DNA from: an uncultured Elusimicrobiales bacterium
GTDB taxonomy: Bacteria > Elusimicrobiota > Elusimicrobia > Elusimicrobiales > Elusimicrobiaceae
Length of the DNA stretch: 33,272 nt
NCBI GenBank assembly: GCA_944324685.1
Contig: CALUXG010000011.1
Span: 1 to 33,272 of the forward strand
Reading direction: 5' to 3'
The notes below the pieces were generated by a model, which worked only from the letters and a program-made list of their open reading frames with translations, was not told the DNA's origin and made no database searches. Shown piece after piece: positions 2,121 through 33,240 of this stretch (positions within the stretch are counted from its first letter, which is position 1; each line of letters begins with the position of its first letter). The translations under genes and the position numbers were made by a program.

Positions 2121-2687
2121 TTAGCGGAGCAAATTCTCCACGAAATTTTTAATGATTTCTGCTTTTTCAAAATAATGTTTGCTGCGAGGCACAATCAGAC
2201 GATTGGGATGGCGCTCCCAAATTTTCAGAATTTTGTCGTCAATTTCAAATGCCTGCTGCAGCGTCTCCGTGCGAACGTTGGTAGCTTGGTAATAATCTTT
2301 TTCCGGCGGAGGAGAGAGATGAATGACCGCGTCATAGCGGGCCAATTCCGCCTCCAGAGAGCTGCCCATGGCTTTGAAAAAATCTTCGGGGCCTTTTGGC
2401 CAGTATACGGCGCCGTCTATGGAGCCGCGGTCGCAAACGATGAGCGGCGCGGAAGAAGTGGCGTTGGCCAAATGCTCCAACTGGTGGACGGTATAAAAAA
2501 TGATACGCTGCGCGTGTTCTATATGAAGGGGGCTGTTGTCCTTGCGCGGGAAACCGCCGCTGTAAATCAGCGTTGCCGCTTCCTGCACCAGCTCAATTTT
2601 GCTGCCGAATGTTTCTTTCAATATGGACAGCGCGGTGGTTTTGCCGCCGCTGGGGCCTCCGGTTAAAACGATTTTCTTTTTGTTCAT
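2121..2687 (-). CDS. P-loop ATPase/kinase-like protein (second of a tandem pair)
   Basis: This 188-residue protein starts at the ATG at 2687, which overlaps the TGA of the upstream paralogue as ATGA and is preceded by a strong AGGAGGAG ribosome binding site. The frame is open further upstream but that part overlaps the neighbour in another frame. A Walker A motif, GGPSGGKTT, lies near residues 9-17. A strand ending LIVCDRGSIDGAVYWP resembles the Walker B/DRG region of NadR-type and AAA_28 P-loop proteins, which includes small-molecule kinases. It matches the upstream gene nearly throughout (for example ILKIWERHPNR), so the pair arose by tandem duplication. The substrate is unknown. Confidence 0.85.
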   Translation of the reverse strand: MNKKKIVLTGGPSGGKTTALSILKETFGSKIELVQEAATLIYSGGFPRKDNSPLHIEHAQRIIFYTVHQLEHLANATSSAPLIVCDRGSIDGAVYWPKGPEDFFKAMGSSLEAELARYDAVIHLSPPPEKDYYQATNVRTETLQQAFEIDDKILKIWERHPNRLIVPRSKHYFEKAEIIKNFVENLLR

Positions 2688-3262
2688 TTTTTCTCCTCCT
2701 GAGGAAGAAGGGTTTCTATAAAATCTTTGATGATGCCGGCTTTTTGGAAGAAATGATCCATGGAAGGCAGCACCATGCGGTTGGGATGACGCTCCCAAAT
2801 TTTCAAAATCTTCCGGTCAATGCGGGAAGCCTCCTCCAGTGTTTCCGTGCGTACACGTGTGGATTGATAAAACTCCGCTTTCAGCGGGGGCGAAAGATGA
2901 ATGACCGCGTCGTAGCGGGCTATTTGTTCTTCCAGCGTGGTTCCCATGGAGGCAAAAAAATCTTCCACTCCCTCTGGCCAATAAACGGCGGCGTCCACGG
3001 TGCCGCGGTCGCACACAATCAATTCGGCCGAAGAAGTTTGCAGGGCCAAGCTTTCCAGCTGCTGCGTAGCGTAGAAAATAATGCGCTGCGCCGTGCGGAC
3101 GTGTTCGGGACTGCCGTCTTTGCGCGGAAAGCCGCCGCTGAAAATCATGGTAGCCGCTTCCGGCACGACTTCTATTTTATTGCCGAAAGTTTCTTTCAGC
3201 ACCGACAGCGCGGTGGTTTTGCCGCCGTTTGGGCCGCCGGTAATGGCAATGCGTTTTGTCAT
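2684..3262 (-). CDS. P-loop ATPase/kinase-like protein (first of a tandem pair)
   Basis: This is a 192-residue single-domain P-loop protein. The Walker A motif GGPNGGKTT is at residues 9-17, a hydrophobic strand with VCDRGTVDAAVYW at 83-95 corresponds to the Walker B/DRG segment, and a conserved VRTETLEEA segment lies near 137-145. This pattern fits the AAA_28 (NadR-like) family, whose members include nucleoside and vitamin kinases and predicted ATPases. The ATG overlaps the stop codon of the upstream M23 peptidase (ATGA) and its own stop overlaps the next ATG, so translation of the three genes is probably coupled. The tandem paralogy suggests a heteromer or two related substrates, but nothing in the sequence decides this. 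Confidence 0.87.
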   Translation of the reverse strand: MTKRIAITGGPNGGKTTALSVLKETFGNKIEVVPEAATMIFSGGFPRKDGSPEHVRTAQRIIFYATQQLESLALQTSSAELIVCDRGTVDAAVYWPEGVEDFFASMGTTLEEQIARYDAVIHLSPPLKAEFYQSTRVRTETLEEASRIDRKILKIWERHPNRMVLPSMDHFFQKAGIIKDFIETLLPQEEKK

Positions 3263-7482: not shown

Positions 7483-8852
7483 CGGGCCAAAGCGTCCGCT
7501 ACGGCCTCGCTGACCGTAGGGTGCGGAAATACGACGCGGCGCAGCTGCTGCACCGTGAAACCAGCTTCCAATGCTACCGTAAACAGGCTGATGATTTCTG
7601 ACGCATTGGGCGCGGCCAGACACACCCCCAGCAATTTCCCGCTTTCGGCATGGCTGACAATTTCCACAAATCCTTCCGCCGCGTCTTGCGTTAAGGCGCG
7701 TCCGTTGGCCAGCATAAAAGCTTTTTGCACTTTTACGTTCAGGCCGCGTTGCTGCGCTTGGGTGCGCGTCAATCCCACGGAGGCCAGCTCCGGCGACGTA
7801 TATACCGCGCTGGGAATCAAATCATTGTTATAGGTCATGGGTACGCCGCAAATGTTATGCGCGGCCACTTCGCCTTGGCGCGAAGCCGCATGCGCCAAAA
7901 GAGACAACCCCGTGATGTCTCCCGCCGCATAGATATGTTCTTTTACCTGCAAAGTCTGGGGGTTAATGCCTTGCAGGCCTTTTCGGGTCCACGCTAAACC
8001 GGCGTTTTCCGGATGCAGGGACGTCAAGTCGCAGCTGCGGCCTATGGCCACCAATATATCGTCGGCTTCCAGTTCCGTTCCGTCTGACAGCGTCAATATT
8101 TTGCGTTCTTTTTCCAACCGTGCGTCTACGGCTTGTTTTCCGACAAGCAGACGGACGCCTTTTTTTTGCAGGTTTTGGCTAAGCAGTCTGGCCAGACTTT
8201 CTTCCATGGTCGGCAGTAAACGCGGCTGCATTTCCACCACGCTGACGTTTACGCCCAAAGAAGACATGAGGGCCGCAAACTCACAGCCGATAACTCCTCC
8301 GCCTATGATGGCCAGTTTTTTAGGCAGGCGCGGTATTTGGAAAATATTGCTGTTGTCGTAAATATGTCCGCGTATTTTATCAAACGGTGGAGGTACGAAA
8401 GCGGTGCTGCCTGCGGCGACAATAATATAGTCAAAAACAAATTCTTTGATTTCTTCTCCCACTTGCGCATACAGCGTATGCGGATCCTTAAATGACGCTT
8501 CCGCCGCGACGACATTTATTTTGGCCTGTTTGAACAGCATGCCGATGCCGCCGGTCAATTTACGCGTAACGGCTTGCTGGCGGGCTTGGATTTTTTCCCA
8601 TGAAAGCTGTGTCAGCAGTGTTTGTGCCGTCGTTTCCGCTCCGTCTTGGCAAAAGCGGGCTATATCTCGTATGGCGTCAAAACGGTGAGCGGCGTCCAGA
8701 AGAGATTTGGAAGGAATGCAGCCGCAGTTAAGGCATACTCCTCCCAACGGACCTTTTTCAAACACGGTTACCTGCGCGCCCAAACGCGCGGCGGCCAACG
8801 CGGCCGGATAACCGGCGGGGCCTGCACCTATGACGGCTAATTTTAATGACAT
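7479..8852 (-). CDS. lpdA: Dihydrolipoyl dehydrogenase (E3)
   Basis: This 457-residue flavoprotein disulfide reductase oxidises dihydrolipoyl groups of 2-oxoacid dehydrogenase or glycine cleavage complexes, using FAD and NAD. The FAD-binding GAGPAG lies at residues 9-14, the redox pair C40/C45 in GGVCLNCGCIPSKSLL (with an extra Cys at 43), the NAD-binding GGGVIG mid-protein, an AAGDITG FAD segment, and the C-terminal HPTVSE catalytic His-Glu. The start at 8852 has GGAGG at the right distance; the longer frame to 8921 lacks family support. It leads the lpd-trmJ-buk-ptb run. No E1 or E2 gene is in the window, so its partner complex is unknown. Confidence 0.93.
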   Translation of the reverse strand: MSLKLAVIGAGPAGYPAALAAARLGAQVTVFEKGPLGGVCLNCGCIPSKSLLDAAHRFDAIRDIARFCQDGAETTAQTLLTQLSWEKIQARQQAVTRKLTGGIGMLFKQAKINVVAAEASFKDPHTLYAQVGEEIKEFVFDYIIVAAGSTAFVPPPFDKIRGHIYDNSNIFQIPRLPKKLAIIGGGVIGCEFAALMSSLGVNVSVVEMQPRLLPTMEESLARLLSQNLQKKGVRLLVGKQAVDARLEKERKILTLSDGTELEADDILVAIGRSCDLTSLHPENAGLAWTRKGLQGINPQTLQVKEHIYAAGDITGLSLLAHAASRQGEVAAHNICGVPMTYNNDLIPSAVYTSPELASVGLTRTQAQQRGLNVKVQKAFMLANGRALTQDAAEGFVEIVSHAESGKLLGVCLAAPNASEIISLFTVALEAGFTVQQLRRVVFPHPTVSEAVADALAR

Positions 8853-8920
8853 ATTGCCTCCGCAAAATAAAAAATGCCAAACTTTCTTGTATTCTAGCAT
8901 TAAAACAGCGGGAAAAAACA

Positions 8921-8932
8921 TATAATTAAATT
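8921..8932 (+). promoter_or_regulatory. -10 box for a leaderless radC transcript
   Basis: A perfect TATAAT (8921-8926) ends 6 nt before the radC ATG at 8933, and there is no Shine-Dalgarno. The transcript would start at or next to the ATG. No good -35 is visible. Confidence 0.5.
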
Positions 8933-9619
8933 ATGTCGACAAATTCCAAGCCTTCTTATTTGGGCCACCGCCAGCGGTTGCGTGCTAAATTTTCCGCCTG
9001 CGGGTTGGATCCTTTTTTGGATCATGAAATCTTGGAGCTTTTGCTGACTTATTGCATAGCGCGGCGGGACACGAAACCCACGGCTTGGGCCTTGATACGG
9101 CGTTTTGGTTCTTTAGGCAGCGTGTTGGATGCGCCGCTGGAGGAATTGTGTGCGGTAAAAGGAGTCGGAGAACAAAGCGCGCGTTTTTTAAAACTGATTC
9201 GCGCCGTGTTCAAAAAATATTCTTTGGAAGAAGTGAAAGAACGCGTAACGGTTCGCACGCCGGAACAGGTGTTAAATTATTGCAAGGCTTCTTTGTCCGC
9301 TAATTCCGATGAGTGCTTGGAGTTGATTTATTTGTCCGTGCGCAATACCATTATTGGGACGGAAGTGGTGGCCCGCGGTGGGTTGGACCGCGTCAGCGTT
9401 TCTCCGCGCACCATTGTGGAACGTGCGCTGGCGGCCAAAGCCGCGGCATTGATTTTGGTGCACAATCATCCATCAGGTGATCCAACGCCTTCCATGGAAG
9501 ATATCGTGTTGACCAAAGAGGTTACCCGTGCCGCTGCATTATTGGGCATTGCGGTGCATGATCATATTATTATAGGTAAAGGCGCGCATTACAGTTTGAA
9601 AGCCAACGGGAAAATATAA
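8933..9619 (+). CDS. radC: RadC family protein (JAB/MPN domain)
   Basis: This 228-residue protein has an N-terminal helix-hairpin-helix region (LCAVKGVGEQSARFL, about 72-86) and a C-terminal MPN+/JAMM metal site, HNHPSGDPTPSMED, with H177, H179 and D190 as expected ligands. RadC-like proteins (UPF0758) are conserved in bacteria; a role in DNA repair is historical and not firmly established. The start at 8933 follows a TATAAT with no ribosome binding site, suggesting leaderless initiation. The stop codon directly abuts the ATG of the next gene, so the two are probably cotranscribed. The length is normal for the family. Confidence 0.92.
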   Translation: MSTNSKPSYLGHRQRLRAKFSACGLDPFLDHEILELLLTYCIARRDTKPTAWALIRRFGSLGSVLDAPLEELCAVKGVGEQSARFLKLIRAVFKKYSLEEVKERVTVRTPEQVLNYCKASLSANSDECLELIYLSVRNTIIGTEVVARGGLDRVSVSPRTIVERALAAKAAALILVHNHPSGDPTPSMEDIVLTKEVTRAAALLGIAVHDHIIIGKGAHYSLKANGKI

Positions 9620-11393: not shown

Positions 11394-11424
11394 TTGATTT
11401 GTTTTTTTTTTTGATACCCTATAC
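11394..11424 (+). promoter_or_regulatory. Prepilin A promoter with an 11-T spacer tract
   Basis: The candidate -35 is TTGATT (11394-11399) and the -10-like box TACCCT (11415-11420). The 15-nt spacer is mostly an uninterrupted run of 11 T (11402-11412). The ATG of the upstream ORF is 4 nt after the -10, so the transcript is predicted to be leaderless. Three other prepilin genes in the window have the same arrangement. Confidence 0.55.
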
Positions 11425-11496
11425 ATGGCGAAAAAACAAACGCCGCTGAGACGTGTTTTTGAACGATTAAACGCTGTTATAGGAAGAAAAAAATGA
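11425..11496 (+). CDS. Upstream ORF of prepilin A (23 residues)
   Basis: A 23-codon frame starts at the predicted leaderless ATG (11425) and ends in a TGA that overlaps the prepilin ATG as ATGA (11493-11496). The peptide is basic, beginning MAKKQTPLRRVFERL and ending GRKK. The same frame occurs before prepilin D (32460) with only one amino-acid change in the first 22 positions. Its last codons contain AGGAAG, which can serve as the prepilin ribosome binding site. It may be a translated leader that couples or gates prepilin translation. It could instead be conserved only as DNA. Confidence 0.45.
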   Translation: MAKKQTPLRRVFERLNAVIGRKK

Positions 11497-15343: not shown

Positions 15344-15356
15344 TAAAATATACACT
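15344..15356 (+). promoter_or_regulatory. -10 box for a leaderless dedA transcript
   Basis: TAAAAT (15344-15349) ends 7 nt before the DedA ATG, with TTTATG 17 nt further upstream as a poor -35. No Shine-Dalgarno is present. Confidence 0.4.
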
Positions 15357-16016
15357 ATGGAATTTTTAGCTCAAGTTTGGGATATTTTTTTGCATTTGGA
15401 CATACACTTAAATGCATGGGCCGGCACGCTGGGGCCGTGGCTGTATGTGGTGCTGTTTGCGGTGGTGTTCTGTGAAACGGGGTTGGTCGTTACGCCTTTT
15501 CTGCCCGGGGATTCTTTGCTTTTTGCGGCGGGGGCTTTGGCTTCTCGTGTCGGAAGCCCTATTGATTTGTGGGTATTGATTCCCGTCATTTTTGCGGCGG
15601 CGGTCATTGGAGACAGCGTAAATTATGAAATAGGTAAATGGCTGGGACCTAAAGTCTTTACGCGAAAAGACAGCTGGCTGCTGAATCAAGATCATCTGCA
15701 TAAAGCTCATGCCTTTTATGAAAAATACGGAGGCAAGACGATTATTTTGGCACGCTTTATTCCCATTATACGTACTTTTGCGCCGTTTGTGGCGGGTATT
15801 GGCAAAATGACGTATTTTCATTTTATTTCTTATAACATTATCGGGGCGGCTTTATGGGTTTTACTGTTCTGTTTGGGCGGATATTGGTTTGCCGATTTGC
15901 CGTTGGTGCAAAATCACTTTCACTATGTGATTGTGGCGATCATCGTCATTTCCGTTCTGCCGGCAGTGTATGAGGTTTGGGCCGAGCGGCGTAAAAATAA
16001 GAGCAAGCGGCGCTGA
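15357..16016 (+). CDS. DedA family membrane protein
   Basis: This 219-residue integral membrane protein has the DedA/VTT signature: an E-x-G segment (FCETGLVVTPFLPGDSLLF, residues about 40-58), then NYEIGKWLGPKVF, FYEKYGGKTIILARFIPIIRTFAPFVAGIGKM with the conserved R/P cluster, and a final GGYWF segment. DedA proteins are half-transporter-like and in several bacteria flip undecaprenyl phosphate or phosphatidylethanolamine, or support envelope homeostasis. It is flanked by its own promoter-like box and a terminator, so it is probably monocistronic. There is no ribosome binding site. Confidence 0.92.
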   Translation: MEFLAQVWDIFLHLDIHLNAWAGTLGPWLYVVLFAVVFCETGLVVTPFLPGDSLLFAAGALASRVGSPIDLWVLIPVIFAAAVIGDSVNYEIGKWLGPKVFTRKDSWLLNQDHLHKAHAFYEKYGGKTIILARFIPIIRTFAPFVAGIGKMTYFHFISYNIIGAALWVLLFCLGGYWFADLPLVQNHFHYVIVAIIVISVLPAVYEVWAERRKNKSKRR

Positions 16017-18911: not shown

Positions 18912-18960
18912 ATATTCTGGAAGTAACTAAATTTTAACGTTTACAAAGGAAGATGCCAAG

Positions 18961-20424
18961 ATGACAGTCAGAGTCAGGTTTGCCCCTTCGCCCACGGGGT
19001 TTTTGCATATTGGGGGCGTGCGCACGGCGCTTTTTAATTATCTTTTTGCCAAAAAGAATAAAGGCGTTTTTTTGCTTCGTATTGAAGATACGGACGAAGA
19101 ACGCAGCACACAGGCTTCCACCGACGCCATTTTTGAGGGCATGCAGTGGATGAAACTGAATTGGGACGAAGGTCCGATGCCTGACGGTACGACTAAGGGT
19201 CCCGACGCTCCTTATTATCAAGCGCAGCGGGCGGATTTAGGCATTTACAAAAAATATATTGACCAGCTTATTGCGGAAGGAAAAGCCTACAAATGCTATT
19301 GTACGGAAGAAGAATTGGAGGCTAACCGTCAAAAATGTCTGGCTGAGCACCGTCCTCCAAAATACAGCGGAAAATGCCGCGATTTGACGCCTGAACAACA
19401 AAAAGAGTTGGAAGCGCAGGGACGCAAGTACGTCATTCGCTTCCGCATGCCCCAACAGGGGGATGTGGAGTGGGACGATATGATCCGCGGTCATGTCAAA
19501 TTTGCCAGCAAAGATTTATATGATTTGGTCATCCAAAAAACCAGCGGTTATCCGACTTATAACTTTGCGGTGGTGGTGGACGATCACCTCATGCGCATGA
19601 CGCACGTTATTCGCGGCGACGACCATATTTCCAATACGCCGGCGCAAATACAGATCTACCGCGCGCTGGGTTGGCAGGAACCCGTATTTGCCCATTTGTC
19701 CATGATTCACGGTCCCGACGGCAAAAAACTGTCCAAACGCCACGGAGCGACCAATGTGGTGGAATTTCGCAATATGGGCTATTTGCCCGAAGCGTTAAAA
19801 AATTATCTCGCGCTTTTAGGTTGGGCTACGCCGGATTCCCAGCAATTGTTTGCCGAAGGGGAATTGGAAGAAAAATTTGATATAGCCGGTTGCCAGCCCA
19901 GTCCCGCGGTCATGGATCCTGAAAAATTAAATTGGATGAACGGGGAATACATTCGGCAGACGCCCGTTTCCGTATTGACGGACTATGCCATGCCATTTAT
20001 TGAGAAAGCCGGCATAGATGTTTCCGGCGTCAGCCGCCAGCGTCTGGAAGGCATCGTGGGGTTGGAGCAGGAAAAATACAAACTGCTTACGGAAATACCC
20101 GATTTGATTCGCTTTTTCTTTGAAGAACCGGTGTTTGAACAGGAGGCGCTGGATAAAGTGTTTTCCAAATCGGAAGCAAAAGACGTTTTGGAAGGCATGA
20201 TAAAAACATACGGCGAATTGGAAGATTTTACGGAAGGCCCGCTGGAAGCGGCTGCCCGCGGTTTTGCCAAAGCCAATGGGTATAAAGCGGGTCAGGTATT
20301 TCATCCGGTTCGCGTAGCCGTGTCCGGCCGTACGCACGGCCCGACGCTGTTTAAGATGCTGGAATATATGGGAAAAGATACGGTGGTGCAGCGTTTGAAA
20401 AACGCTTTGCAGTACTGTAAATAA
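18961..20424 (+). CDS. gltX: Glutamate-tRNA ligase
   Basis: This 487-residue class I aminoacyl-tRNA synthetase charges tRNA(Glu), and possibly tRNA(Gln) if a GatCAB amidotransferase exists elsewhere. The HIGH-type motif is FAPSPTGFLHIGGVRTALFN near residues 6-25, and the KMSKS-type motif is KKLSKRHG near 257-264. Cysteines at CYCTEEELEANR indicate a zinc-binding SWIM-like segment typical of bacterial GluRS. A conserved VVVDDHLMRMTHVIRGDDHI precedes the KLSKR loop. An AAGGAAG ribosome binding site and a promoter are visible. A GYF-like membrane protein and pilT follow on the same strand without a clear terminator, so the three may share transcripts. Confidence 0.95.
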   Translation: MTVRVRFAPSPTGFLHIGGVRTALFNYLFAKKNKGVFLLRIEDTDEERSTQASTDAIFEGMQWMKLNWDEGPMPDGTTKGPDAPYYQAQRADLGIYKKYIDQLIAEGKAYKCYCTEEELEANRQKCLAEHRPPKYSGKCRDLTPEQQKELEAQGRKYVIRFRMPQQGDVEWDDMIRGHVKFASKDLYDLVIQKTSGYPTYNFAVVVDDHLMRMTHVIRGDDHISNTPAQIQIYRALGWQEPVFAHLSMIHGPDGKKLSKRHGATNVVEFRNMGYLPEALKNYLALLGWATPDSQQLFAEGELEEKFDIAGCQPSPAVMDPEKLNWMNGEYIRQTPVSVLTDYAMPFIEKAGIDVSGVSRQRLEGIVGLEQEKYKLLTEIPDLIRFFFEEPVFEQEALDKVFSKSEAKDVLEGMIKTYGELEDFTEGPLEAAARGFAKANGYKAGQVFHPVRVAVSGRTHGPTLFKMLEYMGKDTVVQRLKNALQYCK

Positions 20425-23637: not shown

Positions 23638-25008
23638 TTATTTGGTAAAAGTGTCGCCGTCTTTTGGAAGAGGCTTGACATGCCCCTCGTTGGATATGCT
23701 GGCTTTGTCTCGCAATTTGCGGTGATAGGTAACGGCAAAACGGTGTACTTCGTCGCGTATTTCCATGAGCAGGTTTAAGGCGGGGTCTCCCAAAGGCAGT
23801 TTAATACTGGTTTCTTGCCCGGGGACATAAATGCCTTCATGTGTTTCTGCCAGTGAAATCATCGGAATATACAAATTGGCTTTGTCGCAGGCGTTTAGTG
23901 CAGCGGTGATTTGCGCTTTTCCTCCGTCCAACAAAAACAAATCGGGTTTTTGGGAAGGATCTCGTTTGATTTGGCGCAGGCGGCGGTAGACGCTTTCCTG
24001 CATCATGGTAAAATCACTGCCGCCTTTTTCCGGCAAGGCAGAACGTATCTTAAAACGCCGGTAATGCTCGTGATTTTTTTCTCCGTTGATATAGCAAACC
24101 ATGCAGCCCACCGCCTCTCTTCCAAACAGATGTGAATTGTCAAACGCTTCAATATGCACAGGCATGCGCGTAAGTCCTACAATATGCGCCAATCGTTTTA
24201 ATTTGTCGGAATTGGCTATGGCGTCCGTGATTTTTTCGTCTTTGTATTGGCTGACGATGACTCGTTCGCGCATATGGTCAAGCGCCTGCAAAAAATTGCG
24301 GTATACGGCGGCTTTTTCGTATTGCAGGCTGTCGGAATATTGCCGCATAAGCGCGGTAATTTTTTGTGTAATTTCCTGAAAGTCTCCGTTTAAGAATATG
24401 GCCATTCTTTGCGCAATTTGACGGTAGTTCTCATAAGATGTTTTGCCGGCGCAAGGAGCGGGACATAAGCCCGTGTGATAGTACAGACAGGCATTTATTT
24501 TGCGCTTGTCCAAAGGTTTTTCCCGCGAGAAATTCCATCGGCACGGGCGAAGAGGGGCATACTTGCTTTTCCATAAAAAATGCATTAAACTGCGCACCAT
24601 GCTGGATTTGGGATAGGGGCCGAAATATAGATCTTTGCCGGCCAGTTTTTTGCGCGCGATGCTGAGGCGTGGAAAATCTTCTCCCATAGACAGTTTTATA
24701 TAAGGGTAGCGTTTGTCATCTTTGCCTAAAGAATTAAAAAAGGGTTGGTATTTTTTTATTAGTTTTTCTTCCAGTACCAAAGCGTCGCGTTCGGAAGCGG
24801 TAACAACATAATCTATTTTCCAGATTAAAGGCAGCAGGCTGGGCAGTTTCCATCCGCGGGAATAAAGATTGCTGTCCTGAAAATATTGTTTGACGCGGTC
24901 GGCCAAGTTTTTGGCTTTGCCTACGTAAATAACCGCGCCTTCGCGCGAACGCATAATGTATACCCCGGGTTTGCGGGGAAGCAATTCGGTTCTGGGATCC
25001 ATTCCCAT
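23638..25008 (-). CDS. uvrC: Short UvrC (excinuclease subunit C) lacking the C-terminal HhH domain
   Basis: This protein of about 456 residues has the UvrC order: an N-terminal GIY-YIG nuclease (KPGVYIMRSREGAVIYVGKAKNL), a Cys-containing segment (INACLYYHTGLCPAPCAGK), a UVR-like helical region, and the RNase H-like C-terminal nuclease (EAFDNSHLFG, LLDGGKAQITAA, IRDEVHRFAVTYHRK). Typical UvrC has about 600 residues and ends in tandem HhH motifs; here the protein stops 22 residues after TYHRK and no HhH coding appears beyond the stop. It incises damaged DNA on both sides of a lesion with UvrAB. The start is 25008 or 25002: TACAAT lies 6 nt before the second ATG, with no ribosome site. The longer frame to 25392 is antisense to rpsT. 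Confidence 0.9.
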   Translation of the reverse strand: MGMDPRTELLPRKPGVYIMRSREGAVIYVGKAKNLADRVKQYFQDSNLYSRGWKLPSLLPLIWKIDYVVTASERDALVLEEKLIKKYQPFFNSLGKDDKRYPYIKLSMGEDFPRLSIARKKLAGKDLYFGPYPKSSMVRSLMHFLWKSKYAPLRPCRWNFSREKPLDKRKINACLYYHTGLCPAPCAGKTSYENYRQIAQRMAIFLNGDFQEITQKITALMRQYSDSLQYEKAAVYRNFLQALDHMRERVIVSQYKDEKITDAIANSDKLKRLAHIVGLTRMPVHIEAFDNSHLFGREAVGCMVCYINGEKNHEHYRRFKIRSALPEKGGSDFTMMQESVYRRLRQIKRDPSQKPDLFLLDGGKAQITAALNACDKANLYIPMISLAETHEGIYVPGQETSIKLPLGDPALNLLMEIRDEVHRFAVTYHRKLRDKASISNEGHVKPLPKDGDTFTK

Positions 25009-25047
25009 ATTGTAGCATTTGGCGTCTTGGCGGGGAGTGGGTAAAAT

Positions 25048-25501: not shown

Positions 25502-25534
25502 GATTTTTTGATTAAAAAAAGCTACCATATATAC

Positions 25535-26309: not shown

Positions 26310-26343
26310 TTGCATTGTTTTTTTTTTTTGATAAATTTTGCGT
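26310..26343 (+). promoter_or_regulatory. Prepilin C promoter with a 12-T spacer tract
   Basis: Candidate -35 TTGCAT (26310-26315), a 16-nt spacer containing 12 uninterrupted T (26318-26329), and -10-like TAAATT (26332-26337). The ATG at 26344 is 6 nt after the -10, so the transcript is predicted to be leaderless. Confidence 0.55.
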
Positions 26344-26365
26344 ATGAACAAAATTTATCAAAAAA
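26324..26365. repeat. 17-bp inverted repeat around the prepilin C start codon
   Basis: The arms 26324-26340 and 26349-26365 (core GATAAATTTTG / CAAAATTTATC, flanked by T6/A6) are perfectly complementary. The 8-nt centre CGTATGAA contains the start codon. The left arm covers the -10 box. The same repeat occurs in cassette E. Confidence 0.85.
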
Positions 26366-27102
26366 TGTATCTGAAGGGAAAAAAGAAGTCTAAAGGCGTT
26401 TTAGGCGGCTTTATTGATAACGTCATTCTGAGAGGTTTTTACTCAGGATCGCGACCTTTTGGGAATCTAAAGTGGTTGGGATGCCGAGTAAAAGCGTCTC
26501 GGCATGACGCTAATATAAATAACGAGAATATAAATGATGACACTATAAATAACGTCATTCTGAGAGGTTTTTACTCAGAATCTCGACCTTTTTCTATCAA
26601 ACGGGCCGGCTTTACGCTGATTGAACTCTTGGTCGTGGTGCTGATTATCGGTATATTGGCGGCCATTGCCCTGCCGCAATATCAGGTGGCGGTATTAAAA
26701 AGCCGGTTTATGAGTTTTATGCCCACCGTGCGCGCTCTGATAAACGCGCAGGAAGTCTATTATATGGCTAACGGCAGATATGCTTATAATCTAAGTCAGC
26801 TGGATGTACAAATTCCGGAGGATTGCCGCGCGCGTTCTAATACCAGTGCTCCCAATGAAATTTTATGCGGGACGGACTGGTTGCTGGATAATGTTTCCTT
26901 AAGAATGGAACCGTTAGGGGTGATGAGTGTTAGTTATTGCCCGGGGAATAATACAAACGGCAGCACTTCTTGTGAACCTGTGTTGGAAGTGAAGCTGACC
27001 TTTTATTATTCTCAGCATGCGGAAAAACCCGATCAGGTCTCTTGCAGCGCAAAAACAAAAAAGGGAACCTTGCTCTGCCATACATTGAAGGGAATTTTTT
27101 AA
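26344..27102 (+). CDS. Type IV prepilin-like protein with an 89-residue N-terminal extension (cassette C)
   Basis: This 252-residue frame has a normal prepilin core, KRAG before the cleavage point, then FTLIELLVVVLIIGILAAIALPQY from residue 90, and a Cys-containing globular domain (YYMANGRYAYNLSQLDV). Before it lie 89 residues instead of the usual 5-30. These begin MNKIYQKMYLKGKKK, then hold two copies of NVILRGFYS(G/E)SRPF 132 nt apart and an Asn-rich stretch of three 5-residue units. The frame is open throughout and no ATG, GTG or TTG lies close to the KRAGF site, so translation from 26344 is the simplest reading. It could also be a cassette disabled by repeat insertion. The stop overlaps that of convergent holA. 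Confidence 0.75.
   Translation: MNKIYQKMYLKGKKKSKGVLGGFIDNVILRGFYSGSRPFGNLKWLGCRVKASRHDANINNENINDDTINNVILRGFYSESRPFSIKRAGFTLIELLVVVLIIGILAAIALPQYQVAVLKSRFMSFMPTVRALINAQEVYYMANGRYAYNLSQLDVQIPEDCRARSNTSAPNEILCGTDWLLDNVSLRMEPLGVMSVSYCPGNNTNGSTSCEPVLEVKLTFYYSQHAEKPDQVSCSAKTKKGTLLCHTLKGIF
26419..26592. repeat. In-frame palindromic repeat cluster inside the prepilin C leader
   Basis: Two 42-bp copies (26419-26460 and 26551-26592) differ at two positions. Each contains ATTCTGAG pairing with CTCAG(G/A)AT across a 9-nt loop. Between them, ATGCCGAG/CTCGGCAT (26481-26505) forms a third palindrome, also with 8-bp arms and a 9-nt loop. A 15-nt tandem repeat of three units (26509-26553) precedes the second copy. 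All units keep the prepilin frame open. Confidence 0.85.
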
Positions 27103-28702: not shown

Positions 28703-31216
28703 CTATTTTTTGGGTGCGGCGATAATACTGACGATGCGCGCCGGCACGGCAATGATTTTTTTGATTTCCATACCCTGCAAGTTTTTTTGTATTTTTTCGG
28801 AAGCAAGGGCGGCTTTTTCCATTTCTTCTTTTGACGCATTGGCCGTGATTTTTATACGGTCGCGCACTTTGCCGTTGATTTGAACAGCCACTTCCACGGT
28901 TTCCTGCGCCATTAAACGTTTGTCCGCCTTTGGCCAAGACTGCTGCACCAAAAAACCGCTGTGGCCGTTGGCCTGCCATATTTCTTCGCTTAAATGCGGG
29001 GCAAACGGATGCAGCAGTTTCAAAAACGTGTCAAAGGTGTCTTGGCTGACGGTGTCCAGTTTGCTGATGTCGTTAAACATGACCATCAGGGCGGAGATGG
29101 CCGTATTGAAATGGAAATTTTCAATGTCTTCCGTTACTTTGGCAATGGTTTTATTGGTCAGGATTTCAATTTCTTTCGGGTTGCTGGCCGTAGTTAATTT
29201 GACCCCGGCGTTCCATGCCATAATGCGGCGCAGAAAACGCGCTATGCCTTCTATGCCTTTCATGTCCCACGGCTTGCTGGCTTCAAAAGGCCCCATAAAC
29301 ATTTCATACATGCGGAAAGCGTCCGCTCCATATTGAGACAAAATATCGTCAGGGTTAATGACGTTTTTCTTGGATTTTGACATTTTTTCCACCATGGGGG
29401 ACAATTCTTCTTTGGTGGTTTTTAAGAATGCCTTTCCGTCCTTAAAGTCTATATCTTCATAAGCGTGGTAGGCCCCCATTTTGTCTCGGTATGAAAAGGC
29501 CAAAATCATGCCTTGATGGCGCAATTTTTGAAAAGGCTCTTTGGTATGCACCACTCCCAAATCATACAGTACTTTATGCCAAAAACGCGCATACAGCAGA
29601 TGCAGTACGGCATGTTCTGCTCCGCCTATATAACAATCCACGGGACCGTATGCTTTTTCAATTTCAGGGTCCACGAGGGTTTGTTCATTATGCGGATCCA
29701 TATAACGCAGATAATACCAACAGGAACCGGCCCATTGCGGCATGGTGTTGGTTTCCCGCTTGGCCGGTGCGCCGCATTGCGGGCAGACGGTATTGACCCA
29801 ATCGGCAGCATTAGCCAGCGGGGATTCCCCATTCCCTGACGGTTCAAAATTTTTCATGTCGGGCAGTTTTAGCGGCAGCTGGTCTTCGGGCAGAGGCACG
29901 ACACCGCATTTTTCGCAATGTACCAGCGGTATGGGTTCGCCCCAATAACGCTGGCGCGCAAAAACCCAATCGCGCAGTTTATACATGGTTTTGGCCTGCC
30001 CTGCGCCTTTTTCTTTCAGCCATTCAATCATTTTGGCTTTGCTTTCACGTACGCGCAAACCGTCCAAGAAACCGGAATTGACTAGCTCACCGTCTCCGGT
30101 ATAAGCCGCTTCTTTTACGCCTTGCTGTGATTTGATAACTTCTATGATTTCCAGACCGAATTTTTTGGCAAAAGCATAGTCCCGCTCGTCATGCGCGGGT
30201 ACGGCCATAATGGCTCCCGTTCCGTAGCCCATCAGTACATAATCGGACGTCCAAACGGGTATTTTCTTTCCGTTTACGGGATTAACGGCGTAAGCGCCGG
30301 TAAACACGCCGGTTTTTTCTTTGTTTAAGTCCGCCCGTTCCAAATCGCTTTTGGAAGCGGCTTGCGCCTGATAAGCGGCCACGTCCTGTTTTTGCTGAGG
30401 GGTAACAATGCGTTGTAAAATAGGATGTTCCGGCGAGACGACCATATACGTTGCGCCAAACAGCGTGTCCGGCCGTGTGGTAAAAACCGTCAGTTTGTCT
30501 TTGCTGCCGTCTATTTGGAACAAAACTTCCGCCCCTTTGCTTTTGCCGATCCAGTTTTTTTGCATGGCCAGAGTGCTTTCGGGCCAGTCCAAGCCGTCCA
30601 AATCTTCCAGCAGGCGTTCGGCGTATGCGGTGATTTTTAACATCCATTGACGCAGCATTTTGCGTTCAATGGCGTGGCCGCAGCGCTCACACTTTCCGTT
30701 AAATACTTCTTCGTTGGCCAACCCTGTTTTGCAGGAGGGACACCAATTGATGGGGACGGTGGCTTCATATGCCAAACCTCTTTTGAAAAGCTGCAGGAAA
30801 ATCCATTGTGTCCAGCGGTAATAGGCGGGATCGGTGGTATTGATTTCACGGTCCCAATCATAAGCCAGCCCCAACGATTTAATTTGGCGGCGGAAATTGT
30901 CTATGTTTTTTTGTGTCGTAACGGCCGGATGAATGCCGGTGGCTATGGCGTAATTTTCTGCCGGCAGGCCGAAAGCGTCCCAACCCATGGGATGAAGTAC
31001 GTCAAACCCGTTCATTAGTTTATAGCGCGTAATAATGTCGGACGCGGTGTATCCCTCAGGATGTCCCACGTGCAGGCCCGCTCCGGACGGATAGGGGAAC
31101 ATGTCCAGACAATAAAATTTTTTGTCCTTAGGCAGGCGGGGGCTGGCAAAAAGTTTTTCTTTTTCCCAGCGCGCTTGTTGTTTCTTGTCAATTGCTTGAA
31201 GGTTTTCGGTACTCAT
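28703..31216 (-). CDS. leuS: Leucine-tRNA ligase
   Basis: This 837-residue class I synthetase has the HIGH-type motif in [16 protein letters not shown] (residues about 41-56), a zinc-binding pair of Cys motifs (WCPSCKT, KCERCG), the CP1 editing domain with [12 protein letters not shown], and KMSKS as [16 protein letters not shown]. The C-terminal tRNA-binding domain ends with [11 protein letters not shown]. It charges tRNA(Leu) and edits mischarged isoleucine-like products. No ribosome site is present; TAGAAT lies 7 nt before the ATG on the minus strand, consistent with a leaderless transcript. It heads the leuS-lptE-holA operon. Confidence 0.95.
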
Positions 31217-31280
31217 ATGTTTTATTCTAACAATTTTGAAAGGATAAATCCGCTTTGCTTTTTGATTTTACGGGTGTGGG

Positions 31281-32354: not shown

Positions 32355-32449
32355 ATTGGATTTTGATATTGGTCGATTTTTTTCTTTACGCCGTTGCCGT
32401 TTATTTGCCGAAAGCCGCCCAAGCCTTGACTCGTCTTTTTTTTTTTTGA
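32324..32449 (+). CDS. Candidate 41-residue membrane peptide
   Basis: A GTG start at 32324 follows AAAGAGGAG by 7 nt, a very good ribosome binding site. The 41-residue product has one hydrophobic segment (NWILILVDFFLYAVAVLF, residues 11-28). The frame ends in FFF and a TGA formed where the 11-T tract of the prepilin D promoter ends, so its end depends on the tract length. A frame of similar size (11286-11414, GTG start, no ribosome site) ends the same way before prepilin A. The role is unknown, and this may be chance. Confidence 0.3.
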   Translation: MAEMFRHDEMNWILILVDFFLYAVAVYLPKAAQALTRLFFF

Positions 32450-32459
32450 TACCCTGTAC
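32427..32459 (+). promoter_or_regulatory. Prepilin D promoter with an 11-T spacer tract
   Basis: Candidate -35 TTGACT (32427-32432), a 17-nt spacer with 11 uninterrupted T (32437-32447), and -10-like TACCCT (32450-32455). The upstream-ORF ATG is 4 nt after the -10. Confidence 0.6.
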
Positions 32460-32595
32460 ATGGCGGAAAAACAAACGCCGCTGAGACGTGTTTTTGAACG
32501 ATTAAACGCTGTTATAGGAAGAAAAAATGAGAAAAGGTTTTACATTAATTGAACTGTTGGTAGTAGTGTTGATTGTCGGTATATTGGCGGCCATA
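32437..32595 (+). repeat. Cassette D leader and prepilin N-terminus, direct repeat of 11402-11562
   Basis: From the T tract to the start codon the two cassettes differ at only two bases and a one-base A indel. Similarity then continues through the hydrophobic N-terminal helix, and falls off in the globular domain. Confidence 0.85.
32460..32552 (+). CDS. Upstream ORF of prepilin D (30 residues, frame-shifted end)
   Basis: It begins MAEKQTPLRRVFERL, as in cassette A. The A run before the prepilin start is one base shorter, so the frame does not stop at the prepilin ATG but continues 26 nt inside the prepilin gene, ending at TGA 32552. It would still overlap and could affect prepilin initiation. 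The AGGAAG site is retained. Confidence 0.4.
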   Translation: MAEKQTPLRRVFERLNAVIGRKNEKRFYIN

Positions 32596-33164: not shown

Positions 33165-33240
33165 TTTTAAAAGGGCTTGCATTGTTTTTTTTTTTTGATA
33201 AATTTTGCGTATGGACAAAATTTATCAAAAAATGTATCTG
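33165..33240 (+). repeat. Cassette E leader, 76-nt direct repeat with cassette C
   Basis: 75 of 76 bases are identical to 26298-26373. The 17-bp inverted repeat (33191-33207 / 33216-33232) is intact; the single difference falls in its centre. Confidence 0.9.
33177..33210 (+). promoter_or_regulatory. Cassette E promoter with a 12-T spacer tract
   Basis: TTGCAT (33177-33182), a 16-nt spacer with 12 T (33185-33196), TAAATT (33199-33204), ATG 6 nt later. The layout is identical to cassette C. Confidence 0.55.

What the first reader, a model, noticed from the sequence alone, without database searches (positions are those of the whole stretch)
8921..8932. Frequent leaderless gene starts
A -10-like hexamer ends 6-7 nt before the start codon, with no Shine-Dalgarno, at radC (TATAAT), dedA (TAAAAT), leuS (TAGAAT), the beta-barrel gene (TACCAT) and uvrC (TACAAT before its second ATG), as well as the prepilin cassettes. 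Other genes here have good AGGAG sites, so both modes coexist. Leaderless initiation at this frequency is known in actinobacteria and Deinococcus but not, to my knowledge, described for this group.
Basis: partly seen in the sequence, partly recalled or inferred. Interest (0 to 1): 0.55.

Follow-up and report, generated by a model that had tools for sequence, protein, structure and literature searches.

The report
Leaderless gene starts in gut Elusimicrobiaceae
In this gut bacterium about one in five genes at the head of a transcription unit has its promoter placed so that the messenger RNA should begin right at the start codon, a known way of starting protein synthesis without a ribosome-binding site, here seen in a little-studied bacterial family.

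Summary
At radC, dedA, leuS, the beta-barrel gene and uvrC a TANNNT hexamer ends exactly 6-7 nt before the ATG, without a Shine-Dalgarno (SD). In 433 kb of the 1.40 Mb genome, 36 of 154 operon-first genes (prepilins excluded) have TATAAT (<=1 mismatch) at that offset, against 3.7 in shuffles and 5.6 at other offsets. Operon-internal genes show little, E. coli none; Deinococcus radiodurans plasmid MP1, the positive control, shows a similar excess, about 20%. The element is often an extended -10 (TGnTAtAAT) with no visible -35; SD in 1 of 40. Orthologues keep it: uvrC in 17 of 17 same-genus genomes at exactly 6 nt, conservation confined to the -10 footprint; control gltX is SD-led in 30 of 30. 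Genes can switch: radC has TATAAT 6 to 19 nt from ATG within one genus. One sub-claim fails: the common prepilin cassette has its hexamer 4 nt from an ATG whose frame is not kept. No RNA data were on hand. A new member of a known kind; earlier surveys may have included this phylum unnamed.

The parts
8921..8926 (+). radC -10 hexamer TATAAT, 6 nt before ATG
   Evidence: TATAAT 6-7 nt before ATG in 5 of 15 same-genus and TANNNT in 13 of 15 other-genus orthologues of the family, further away or absent in the rest
8933..9619 (+). radC, leaderless start ATG 8933
   Evidence: NCBIfam RadC equivalog, profile position 1 at residue 17, so the model itself does not fix the start
15344..15349 (+). dedA -10 hexamer TAAAAT, 7 nt before ATG
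   Evidence: TANNNT at 6-7 nt in 14 of 17 same-genus orthologues
15357..16016 (+). dedA, leaderless start ATG 15357
   Evidence: NCBIfam DedA equivalog, profile 1-217 on residues 1-217
25523..25528 (+). beta-barrel gene -10-like hexamer TACCAT, 6 nt before ATG (weakest of the five)
   Evidence: not tested in orthologues
25009..25017 (-). uvrC extended -10 TGC-TACAAT, hexamer 25014-25009, 6 nt before ATG
   Evidence: 17 of 17 same-genus orthologues keep TGnTANANT-N6-ATG
23638..25002 (-). uvrC, leaderless start ATG 25002
   Evidence: TIGR00194 equivalog, profile position 6 at residue 6
31224..31232 (-). leuS extended -10 TGT-TAGAAT, hexamer 31229-31224, 7 nt before ATG
   Evidence: 20 of 21 same-genus orthologues with TGnTANNNT 6-9 nt before ATG
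28703..31216 (-). leuS, leaderless or nearly leaderless start ATG 31216
   Evidence: TIGR00396 equivalog, profile position 2 at residue 5
8849..8901 (-). contrast: divergent neighbour of radC with its own TGC-TAGAAT about 40 nt upstream and GGAGG before ATG
   Evidence: sequence read
18940..18963 (+). contrast: gltX SD-led start (AAAGGA ... ATG 18961)
   Evidence: SD in 30 of 30 orthologues, no TANNNT at 6-9 nt

Best explanation
These are leaderless genes. A sigma-70-type -10 element, often extended (consensus about AAATTTGnTAtAAT, no fixed -35), lies so that its last T is at -7 or -8 relative to the A of ATG, so RNA polymerase should start at or within 1-2 nt of that A; the mRNA then begins with AUG and is translated without an SD, most likely by 70S or fMet-tRNA-loaded ribosomes as for other leaderless mRNAs. 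Shown here: the position-specific element, absence of SD, restriction to operon-first genes, ATG only, conservation in the genus and partly in the family. Inferred from established promoter geometry and published leaderless biology: the transcription start point and the mode of ribosome entry. About one fifth of operon-first genes use it; most of the rest that can be classed are SD-led.
For: Enrichment 36 of 154 against shuffle mean 3.67 and other-offset mean 5.64; TGnTAnnnT 23 of 154 against 0.58 and 2.14; peaks at offsets 6 and 7; operon-internal genes 3 and 1 of 128 at offsets 6 and 7; E. coli 1 of 90; positive control D. radiodurans MP1 TANNNT 9 and 3 of 53 at offsets 6 and 7 against 0.61 per offset. 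TA-led genes: SD in 1 of 40; other first genes: SD at some candidate start in 74 of 129. Other Elusimicrobiaceae, TATAAT (<=1 mismatch) at 6-7 nt: G016 9 of 36, G015 7 of 32, G047 9 of 39, G071 14 of 96, G073 7 of 81. uvrC 17 of 17 at exactly 6 nt; columns -16 to -14, -12, -11, -9 and -7 invariant while columns upstream of -18 reach at most 10 of 17 and the 6-nt spacer varies. Mode kept between orthologues found in five relatives: TA-led 10 of 12 (0 SD), SD-led 19 of 22 (1 TA). Starts fit family models near residue 1: DedA, MntP, Ndk, FolD, UvrB, TatD, GlyQ within 6 residues.
Against: No transcript 5' end was measured. G073, same genus, is only marginal with the hexamer alone (7 of 81, P 0.05). 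leuS orthologues place the hexamer 8-9 nt from ATG in 12 of 21, implying leaders of 1-3 nt, not strictly zero. radC has TATAAT 13-19 nt away in 10 of 15 same-genus genomes. Outside the genus the mode is often lost: dedA 1 of 13, uvrC 5 of 13, leuS 0 of 9. About 13 of the 45 TANNNT hits are expected by chance, so single weak sites such as TACCAT may be accidental.
Confidence: 0.88

Rival explanations
1. The hexamer is a real -10 but the chosen ATG is not the start: transcription begins at it and translation at a later ATG with an SD.
For: Start calls rest on my own gene finder, which sometimes chose a later codon (radC 8960, gltX 19003).
Against: Family models begin within a few codons of the ATG: DedA profile 1 at residue 1, UvrB 1 at 3, MntP 1 at 1, Ndk 3 at 1, FolD 3 at 2. 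uvrC and dedA N-termini and the in-frame ATG are kept in all 17 same-genus genomes.
Confidence: 0.05
2. Transcription starts further upstream; the A/T-rich hexamer is an AT-rich, S1-binding or unstructured stretch in an ordinary but SD-less leader.
For: SD-less leadered genes are known (PMC5397173, passages read, discusses S1 and AT bias as alternatives). 55 of 129 other first genes have no SD by my criterion.
Against: The signal is confined to offsets 6-7, TGn is enriched with it (19 of 36 near against 21 of 100 farther away, Fisher P 6e-4), and uvrC conservation is confined to the -10 footprint. The shuffles keep the AT-richness. E. coli shows nothing.
Confidence: 0.05
3. Chance or artefact of choosing starts that fit.
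Against: All offsets were scored with the same freedom in choosing starts; P 1.3e-17.
Confidence: 0.02

Closest known systems
-10-motif-adjacent leaderless ORFs of Deinococcus-Thermus (PMC12340547: outline, passages, section 11 read)
   Same: TANNNT ending 6-7 bp before the ORF, no SD, SD-led genes in the same genome; similar share in my MP1 control
   Different: Here the hexamer is closer to TATAAT and often preceded by TGn; Elusimicrobiota not named in the parts read; no experiment here
TA-led genes of Zheng et al. 2011 (PMC3160421: abstract, section 7 and passages read)
   Same: TA-like signal about 10 bp upstream of the start; they note a TATAAT form at medium and low GC and a TG peak in some low-GC genomes such as Lactococcus
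   Different: Elusimicrobia not named in the text read; may sit in 'Other Bacteria' (8 of 20 genomes)
Mycobacterial and other actinobacterial leaderless transcripts (PMC4633059, PMC3898074: search listing only)
   Same: Leaderless and SD-led genes side by side
   Different: GTG leaderless starts are recalled as common there; none seen here at 6-7 nt (0 of 58 first genes with a GTG candidate)
Extended -10 promoters (general knowledge, recalled)
   Same: TGn directly upstream of the -10, weak or absent -35
   Different: Here combined with a start codon at the expected +1

Membership tests
Leaderless (TA-led) bacterial genes | -10-like hexamer about 10 bp upstream of the start codon, position-specific | tested here: met
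   five window sites
Leaderless (TA-led) bacterial genes | no Shine-Dalgarno | tested here: met
   SD in 1 of 40 TA-led first genes
Leaderless (TA-led) bacterial genes | first gene of its transcription unit | tested here: met
   36 of 154 first genes against 3 and 1 of 128 inner genes; units inferred from gene spacing and strand only
Leaderless (TA-led) bacterial genes | start codon correctly placed | tested here: met
   family models and orthologue N-termini; not for every gene, and not fixed by the model for radC
Leaderless (TA-led) bacterial genes | mRNA 5' end at the start codon | not testable with these tools
   no transcript data
Leaderless (TA-led) bacterial genes | translated without a leader | not testable with these tools
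   needs a reporter or ribosome profiling
Extended -10 promoter | TGn upstream of the -10 | tested here: inconclusive
   19 of 36 sites; uvrC 17 of 17 and leuS 20 of 21, but radC 0 of 15 and dedA 8 of 17 same-genus: true of part of the class
Extended -10 promoter | no -35 needed | tested here: inconclusive
   no information at -35 at fixed spacing; variable spacing and need not tested

The most novel reading that the evidence does not exclude
Elusimicrobiaceae run a standing leaderless class of roughly a fifth of their operon-first genes on -35-less, often extended -10 promoters with ATG only, and single genes move between leaderless and leadered SD translation within one genus: radC keeps TATAAT while its distance to ATG runs 6, 7, 13, 16-19 nt, and an SD-like AGGA is flagged only at 17-19 nt (5 of the 10 genomes with distances of 13 or more).
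Probability: 0.6. Interest if true: 0.55.

Novelty: new member of a known kind. Interest (0 to 1): 0.4.

Why it matters
It extends large-scale leaderless expression to Elusimicrobiaceae, a mostly uncultured gut family, so start-codon annotation and promoter prediction in these genomes should use a leaderless model. The radC series offers a natural experiment on how a gene gains or loses a leader and an SD by sliding its start codon against a fixed promoter.

Tried and rejected
Rejected: the common prepilin cassette as leaderless (hexamer usually 4 nt from ATG; frame not kept). The first, upstream ATG of uvrC as start: the second is the conserved one. GTG or TTG leaderless starts: none above background. 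Base before ATG as a start-point signature: pyrimidine in 33 of 36 TA-led but also 53 of 69 SD-led, so weak. A phylum-wide claim: no clear hexamer signal in G129, G110, G062 or G034 (1-3 genes each), though TGnTAnnnT in G110 is nominally 3 against 0.36; clear in G027 (11 of 101). The 16S tail pattern was absent from the window's own assembly, so the anti-SD was checked in relatives only: present in 7 of 8. Dropped before counts: prepilin-like genes (23 in the own sample), genes next to the end of a stretch, genes without an ATG candidate. For leuS, L071 was scored 'none' because my script took a TTG; by eye an ATG lies 9 nt after TACAAT.

Led nowhere: paper searches brought no report on this question in this group; only confirmed radC by homology.

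Full report
What the window is. The window is contig 11 of a 1,397,896-base assembly in 49 contigs. Its nearest named relatives by LeuS are uncultured Elusimicrobium, Elusimicrobiaceae and Elusimicrobiales, several of them from rumen samples by title. G+C of the sample is 48%.

The five sites. radC, dedA, leuS, the beta-barrel gene and uvrC each have a TANNNT hexamer ending 6 or 7 nt before ATG and no SD. The genes are RadC, DedA, UvrC and LeuS by curated models; the beta-barrel has no hit. Other window genes, including the divergent neighbour of radC (GGAGG) and gltX, carry SDs.

Genome sample. I took 20 stretches of 20 kb plus the window, 433 kb of 1.40 Mb, and called 388 genes with a dicodon gene finder of my own. 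For every offset I counted operon-first genes (divergent upstream neighbour, or a gap of at least 60 nt) having some ATG candidate near the predicted start with the hexamer at that offset, so the freedom in choosing starts is the same for all offsets. TATAAT with at most one mismatch peaks at offset 6 (26 genes) and 7 (10 genes) of 154, against 2.87 per offset elsewhere. Shuffling gives 3.67 for the pair. Operon-internal genes give 3 and 1 of 128 against 0.74 per offset. GTG and TTG candidates show no peak. Prepilin-like genes were left out of these counts.

Form of the element. Among 40 TA-led first genes (TATAAT-like or TGnTANNNT) one has an SD; among 129 others 74 have one at some candidate start. 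The aligned consensus is about AAATTTGCTATAAT with no information around -35. Selection on TG inflates that logo; using TATAAT-like sites only, TGn precedes 19 of 36 at offsets 6-7 and 21 of 100 at 12-60 nt (P 6e-4). In five other Elusimicrobiaceae it is 16 of 47 against 30 of 230 (P 0.001).

Controls. E. coli K-12, 200 kb: 1 of 90. D. radiodurans MP1, 150 kb: TANNNT in 9 and 3 of 53 first genes at offsets 6 and 7 against 0.61 per offset, an excess near 20%. The window's genome gives the same excess, 19.6-20.7%.

Relatives. TATAAT-like at 6-7 nt, operon-first genes: G016 9 of 36, G015 7 of 32, G073 7 of 81 (same genus); G071 14 of 96, G047 9 of 39 (same family; G071, one contig of 1,643,562 bases, is by recalled size Elusimicrobium minutum); G027 11 of 101 and G034 1 of 29 (same order); G129 2 of 42 (class); G110 2 of 68 and G062 3 of 52 (phylum). 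The signal is clear in the family and in one of two genomes of a neighbouring family, and not established beyond. G073 is marginal by hexamer (P 0.05) though 4 against 0.86 with TGn (P 0.01).

Orthologues. I read 30 loci for each of five genes (36 to 41 genomes had a match, the best 30 were taken). uvrC, same genus: 17 of 17 with TANNNT at exactly 6 nt, all with TGn; columns A-16, T-15, G-14, T-12, A-11, A-9 and T-7 are invariant, the spacer varies and everything upstream of -18 is diverged. dedA: 14 of 17 at 6-7 nt. leuS: 20 of 21 at 6-9 nt, all 20 with TGn. radC: 6 of 15 at 6-7 nt in the genus (one of them, L239, has its TATAAT at 19 nt, so 5 by TATAAT) and 13 of 15 elsewhere in the family. 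Control gltX: SD in 30 of 30 and no such hexamer. Outside the genus the mode is often not kept: dedA 1 of 13, uvrC 5 of 13, leuS 0 of 9. Searching the 40 TA-led and 58 SD-led own genes in the stretches of five relatives gave 12 and 22 usable orthologue starts (3 and 9 skipped): 10 of 12 TA-led (none SD) and 19 of 22 SD-led (one TA).

Switching. Within the genus radC has TATAAT 6, 6, 6, 6, 17, 17, 18, 13, 13, 19, 7, 18, 16, 18 and 19 nt from ATG in 15 genomes; an AGGA-like SD is flagged in 5, all at 17-19 nt. So a gene seems able to pass from a leaderless start to a short leader and to an SD; the direction is not shown.

Mechanism. Shown: the element, its position, absence of SD, conservation. 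Inferred: the start point (+1 about 7 nt after the -10, textbook geometry) and SD-independent ribosome entry. The anti-SD tail is present in 7 of 8 relatives checked, in keeping with coexistence of both modes.

Novelty. Zheng et al. 2011 (abstract, section 7, passages) found leaderless genes in 207 of 953 bacterial genomes, including 8 of 20 'Other Bacteria'; the 2025 Deinococcus-Thermus paper (outline, passages, section 11) scanned bacteria at large. Elusimicrobiota are not named in the parts I read. Search of the held library for leaderless with Elusimicrob- found two papers: one (passages) gives only an anti-SD class for Elusimicrobia, the other was seen in the listing only. Search with transcription start site found four, none on the subject by listing. 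I file it as a new member of a known kind.

Noticed in passing
11402-11493, 32436-32527, 26317-26344, 33184-33211; loci L004-L030: Prepilin genes (76 prepilin-type N-termini in the genome) carry repeated upstream cassettes with a poly-T tract of varying length (about 7-14 T) abutting GATACCCTATAC or GATAAATTTTG. Slippage in such a tract next to a -10 could make pilin expression phase-variable.
   Followed up: partly
26325-26360: The second cassette is a palindrome (TTGATAAATTTTG ... CAAAATTTATCAA) spanning promoter and leaderless ATG; an operator or terminator role is untested.
   Followed up: no
26420-26595: A repeat starting GTCATTCTGAGAGGTTTTTACTCAG occurs twice inside the long N-terminal extension of a prepilin and is translated; related stretches appear in other prepilin extensions.
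   Followed up: no
23638-25002: UvrC is 454 aa, while the TIGR00194 model has 574 positions; most family orthologues have open frames of about 440-510 aa, so a C-terminal part may be missing in the whole family.
   Followed up: no
8849-8932: Back-to-back promoters: leaderless radC on one strand and an SD-led gene with its own TGCTAGAAT on the other.
   Followed up: partly
2121-3262: Two adjacent, overlapping reading frames of similar size on the minus strand, with look-alike DNA at both ends, probably tandem paralogues; not identified.
   Followed up: no
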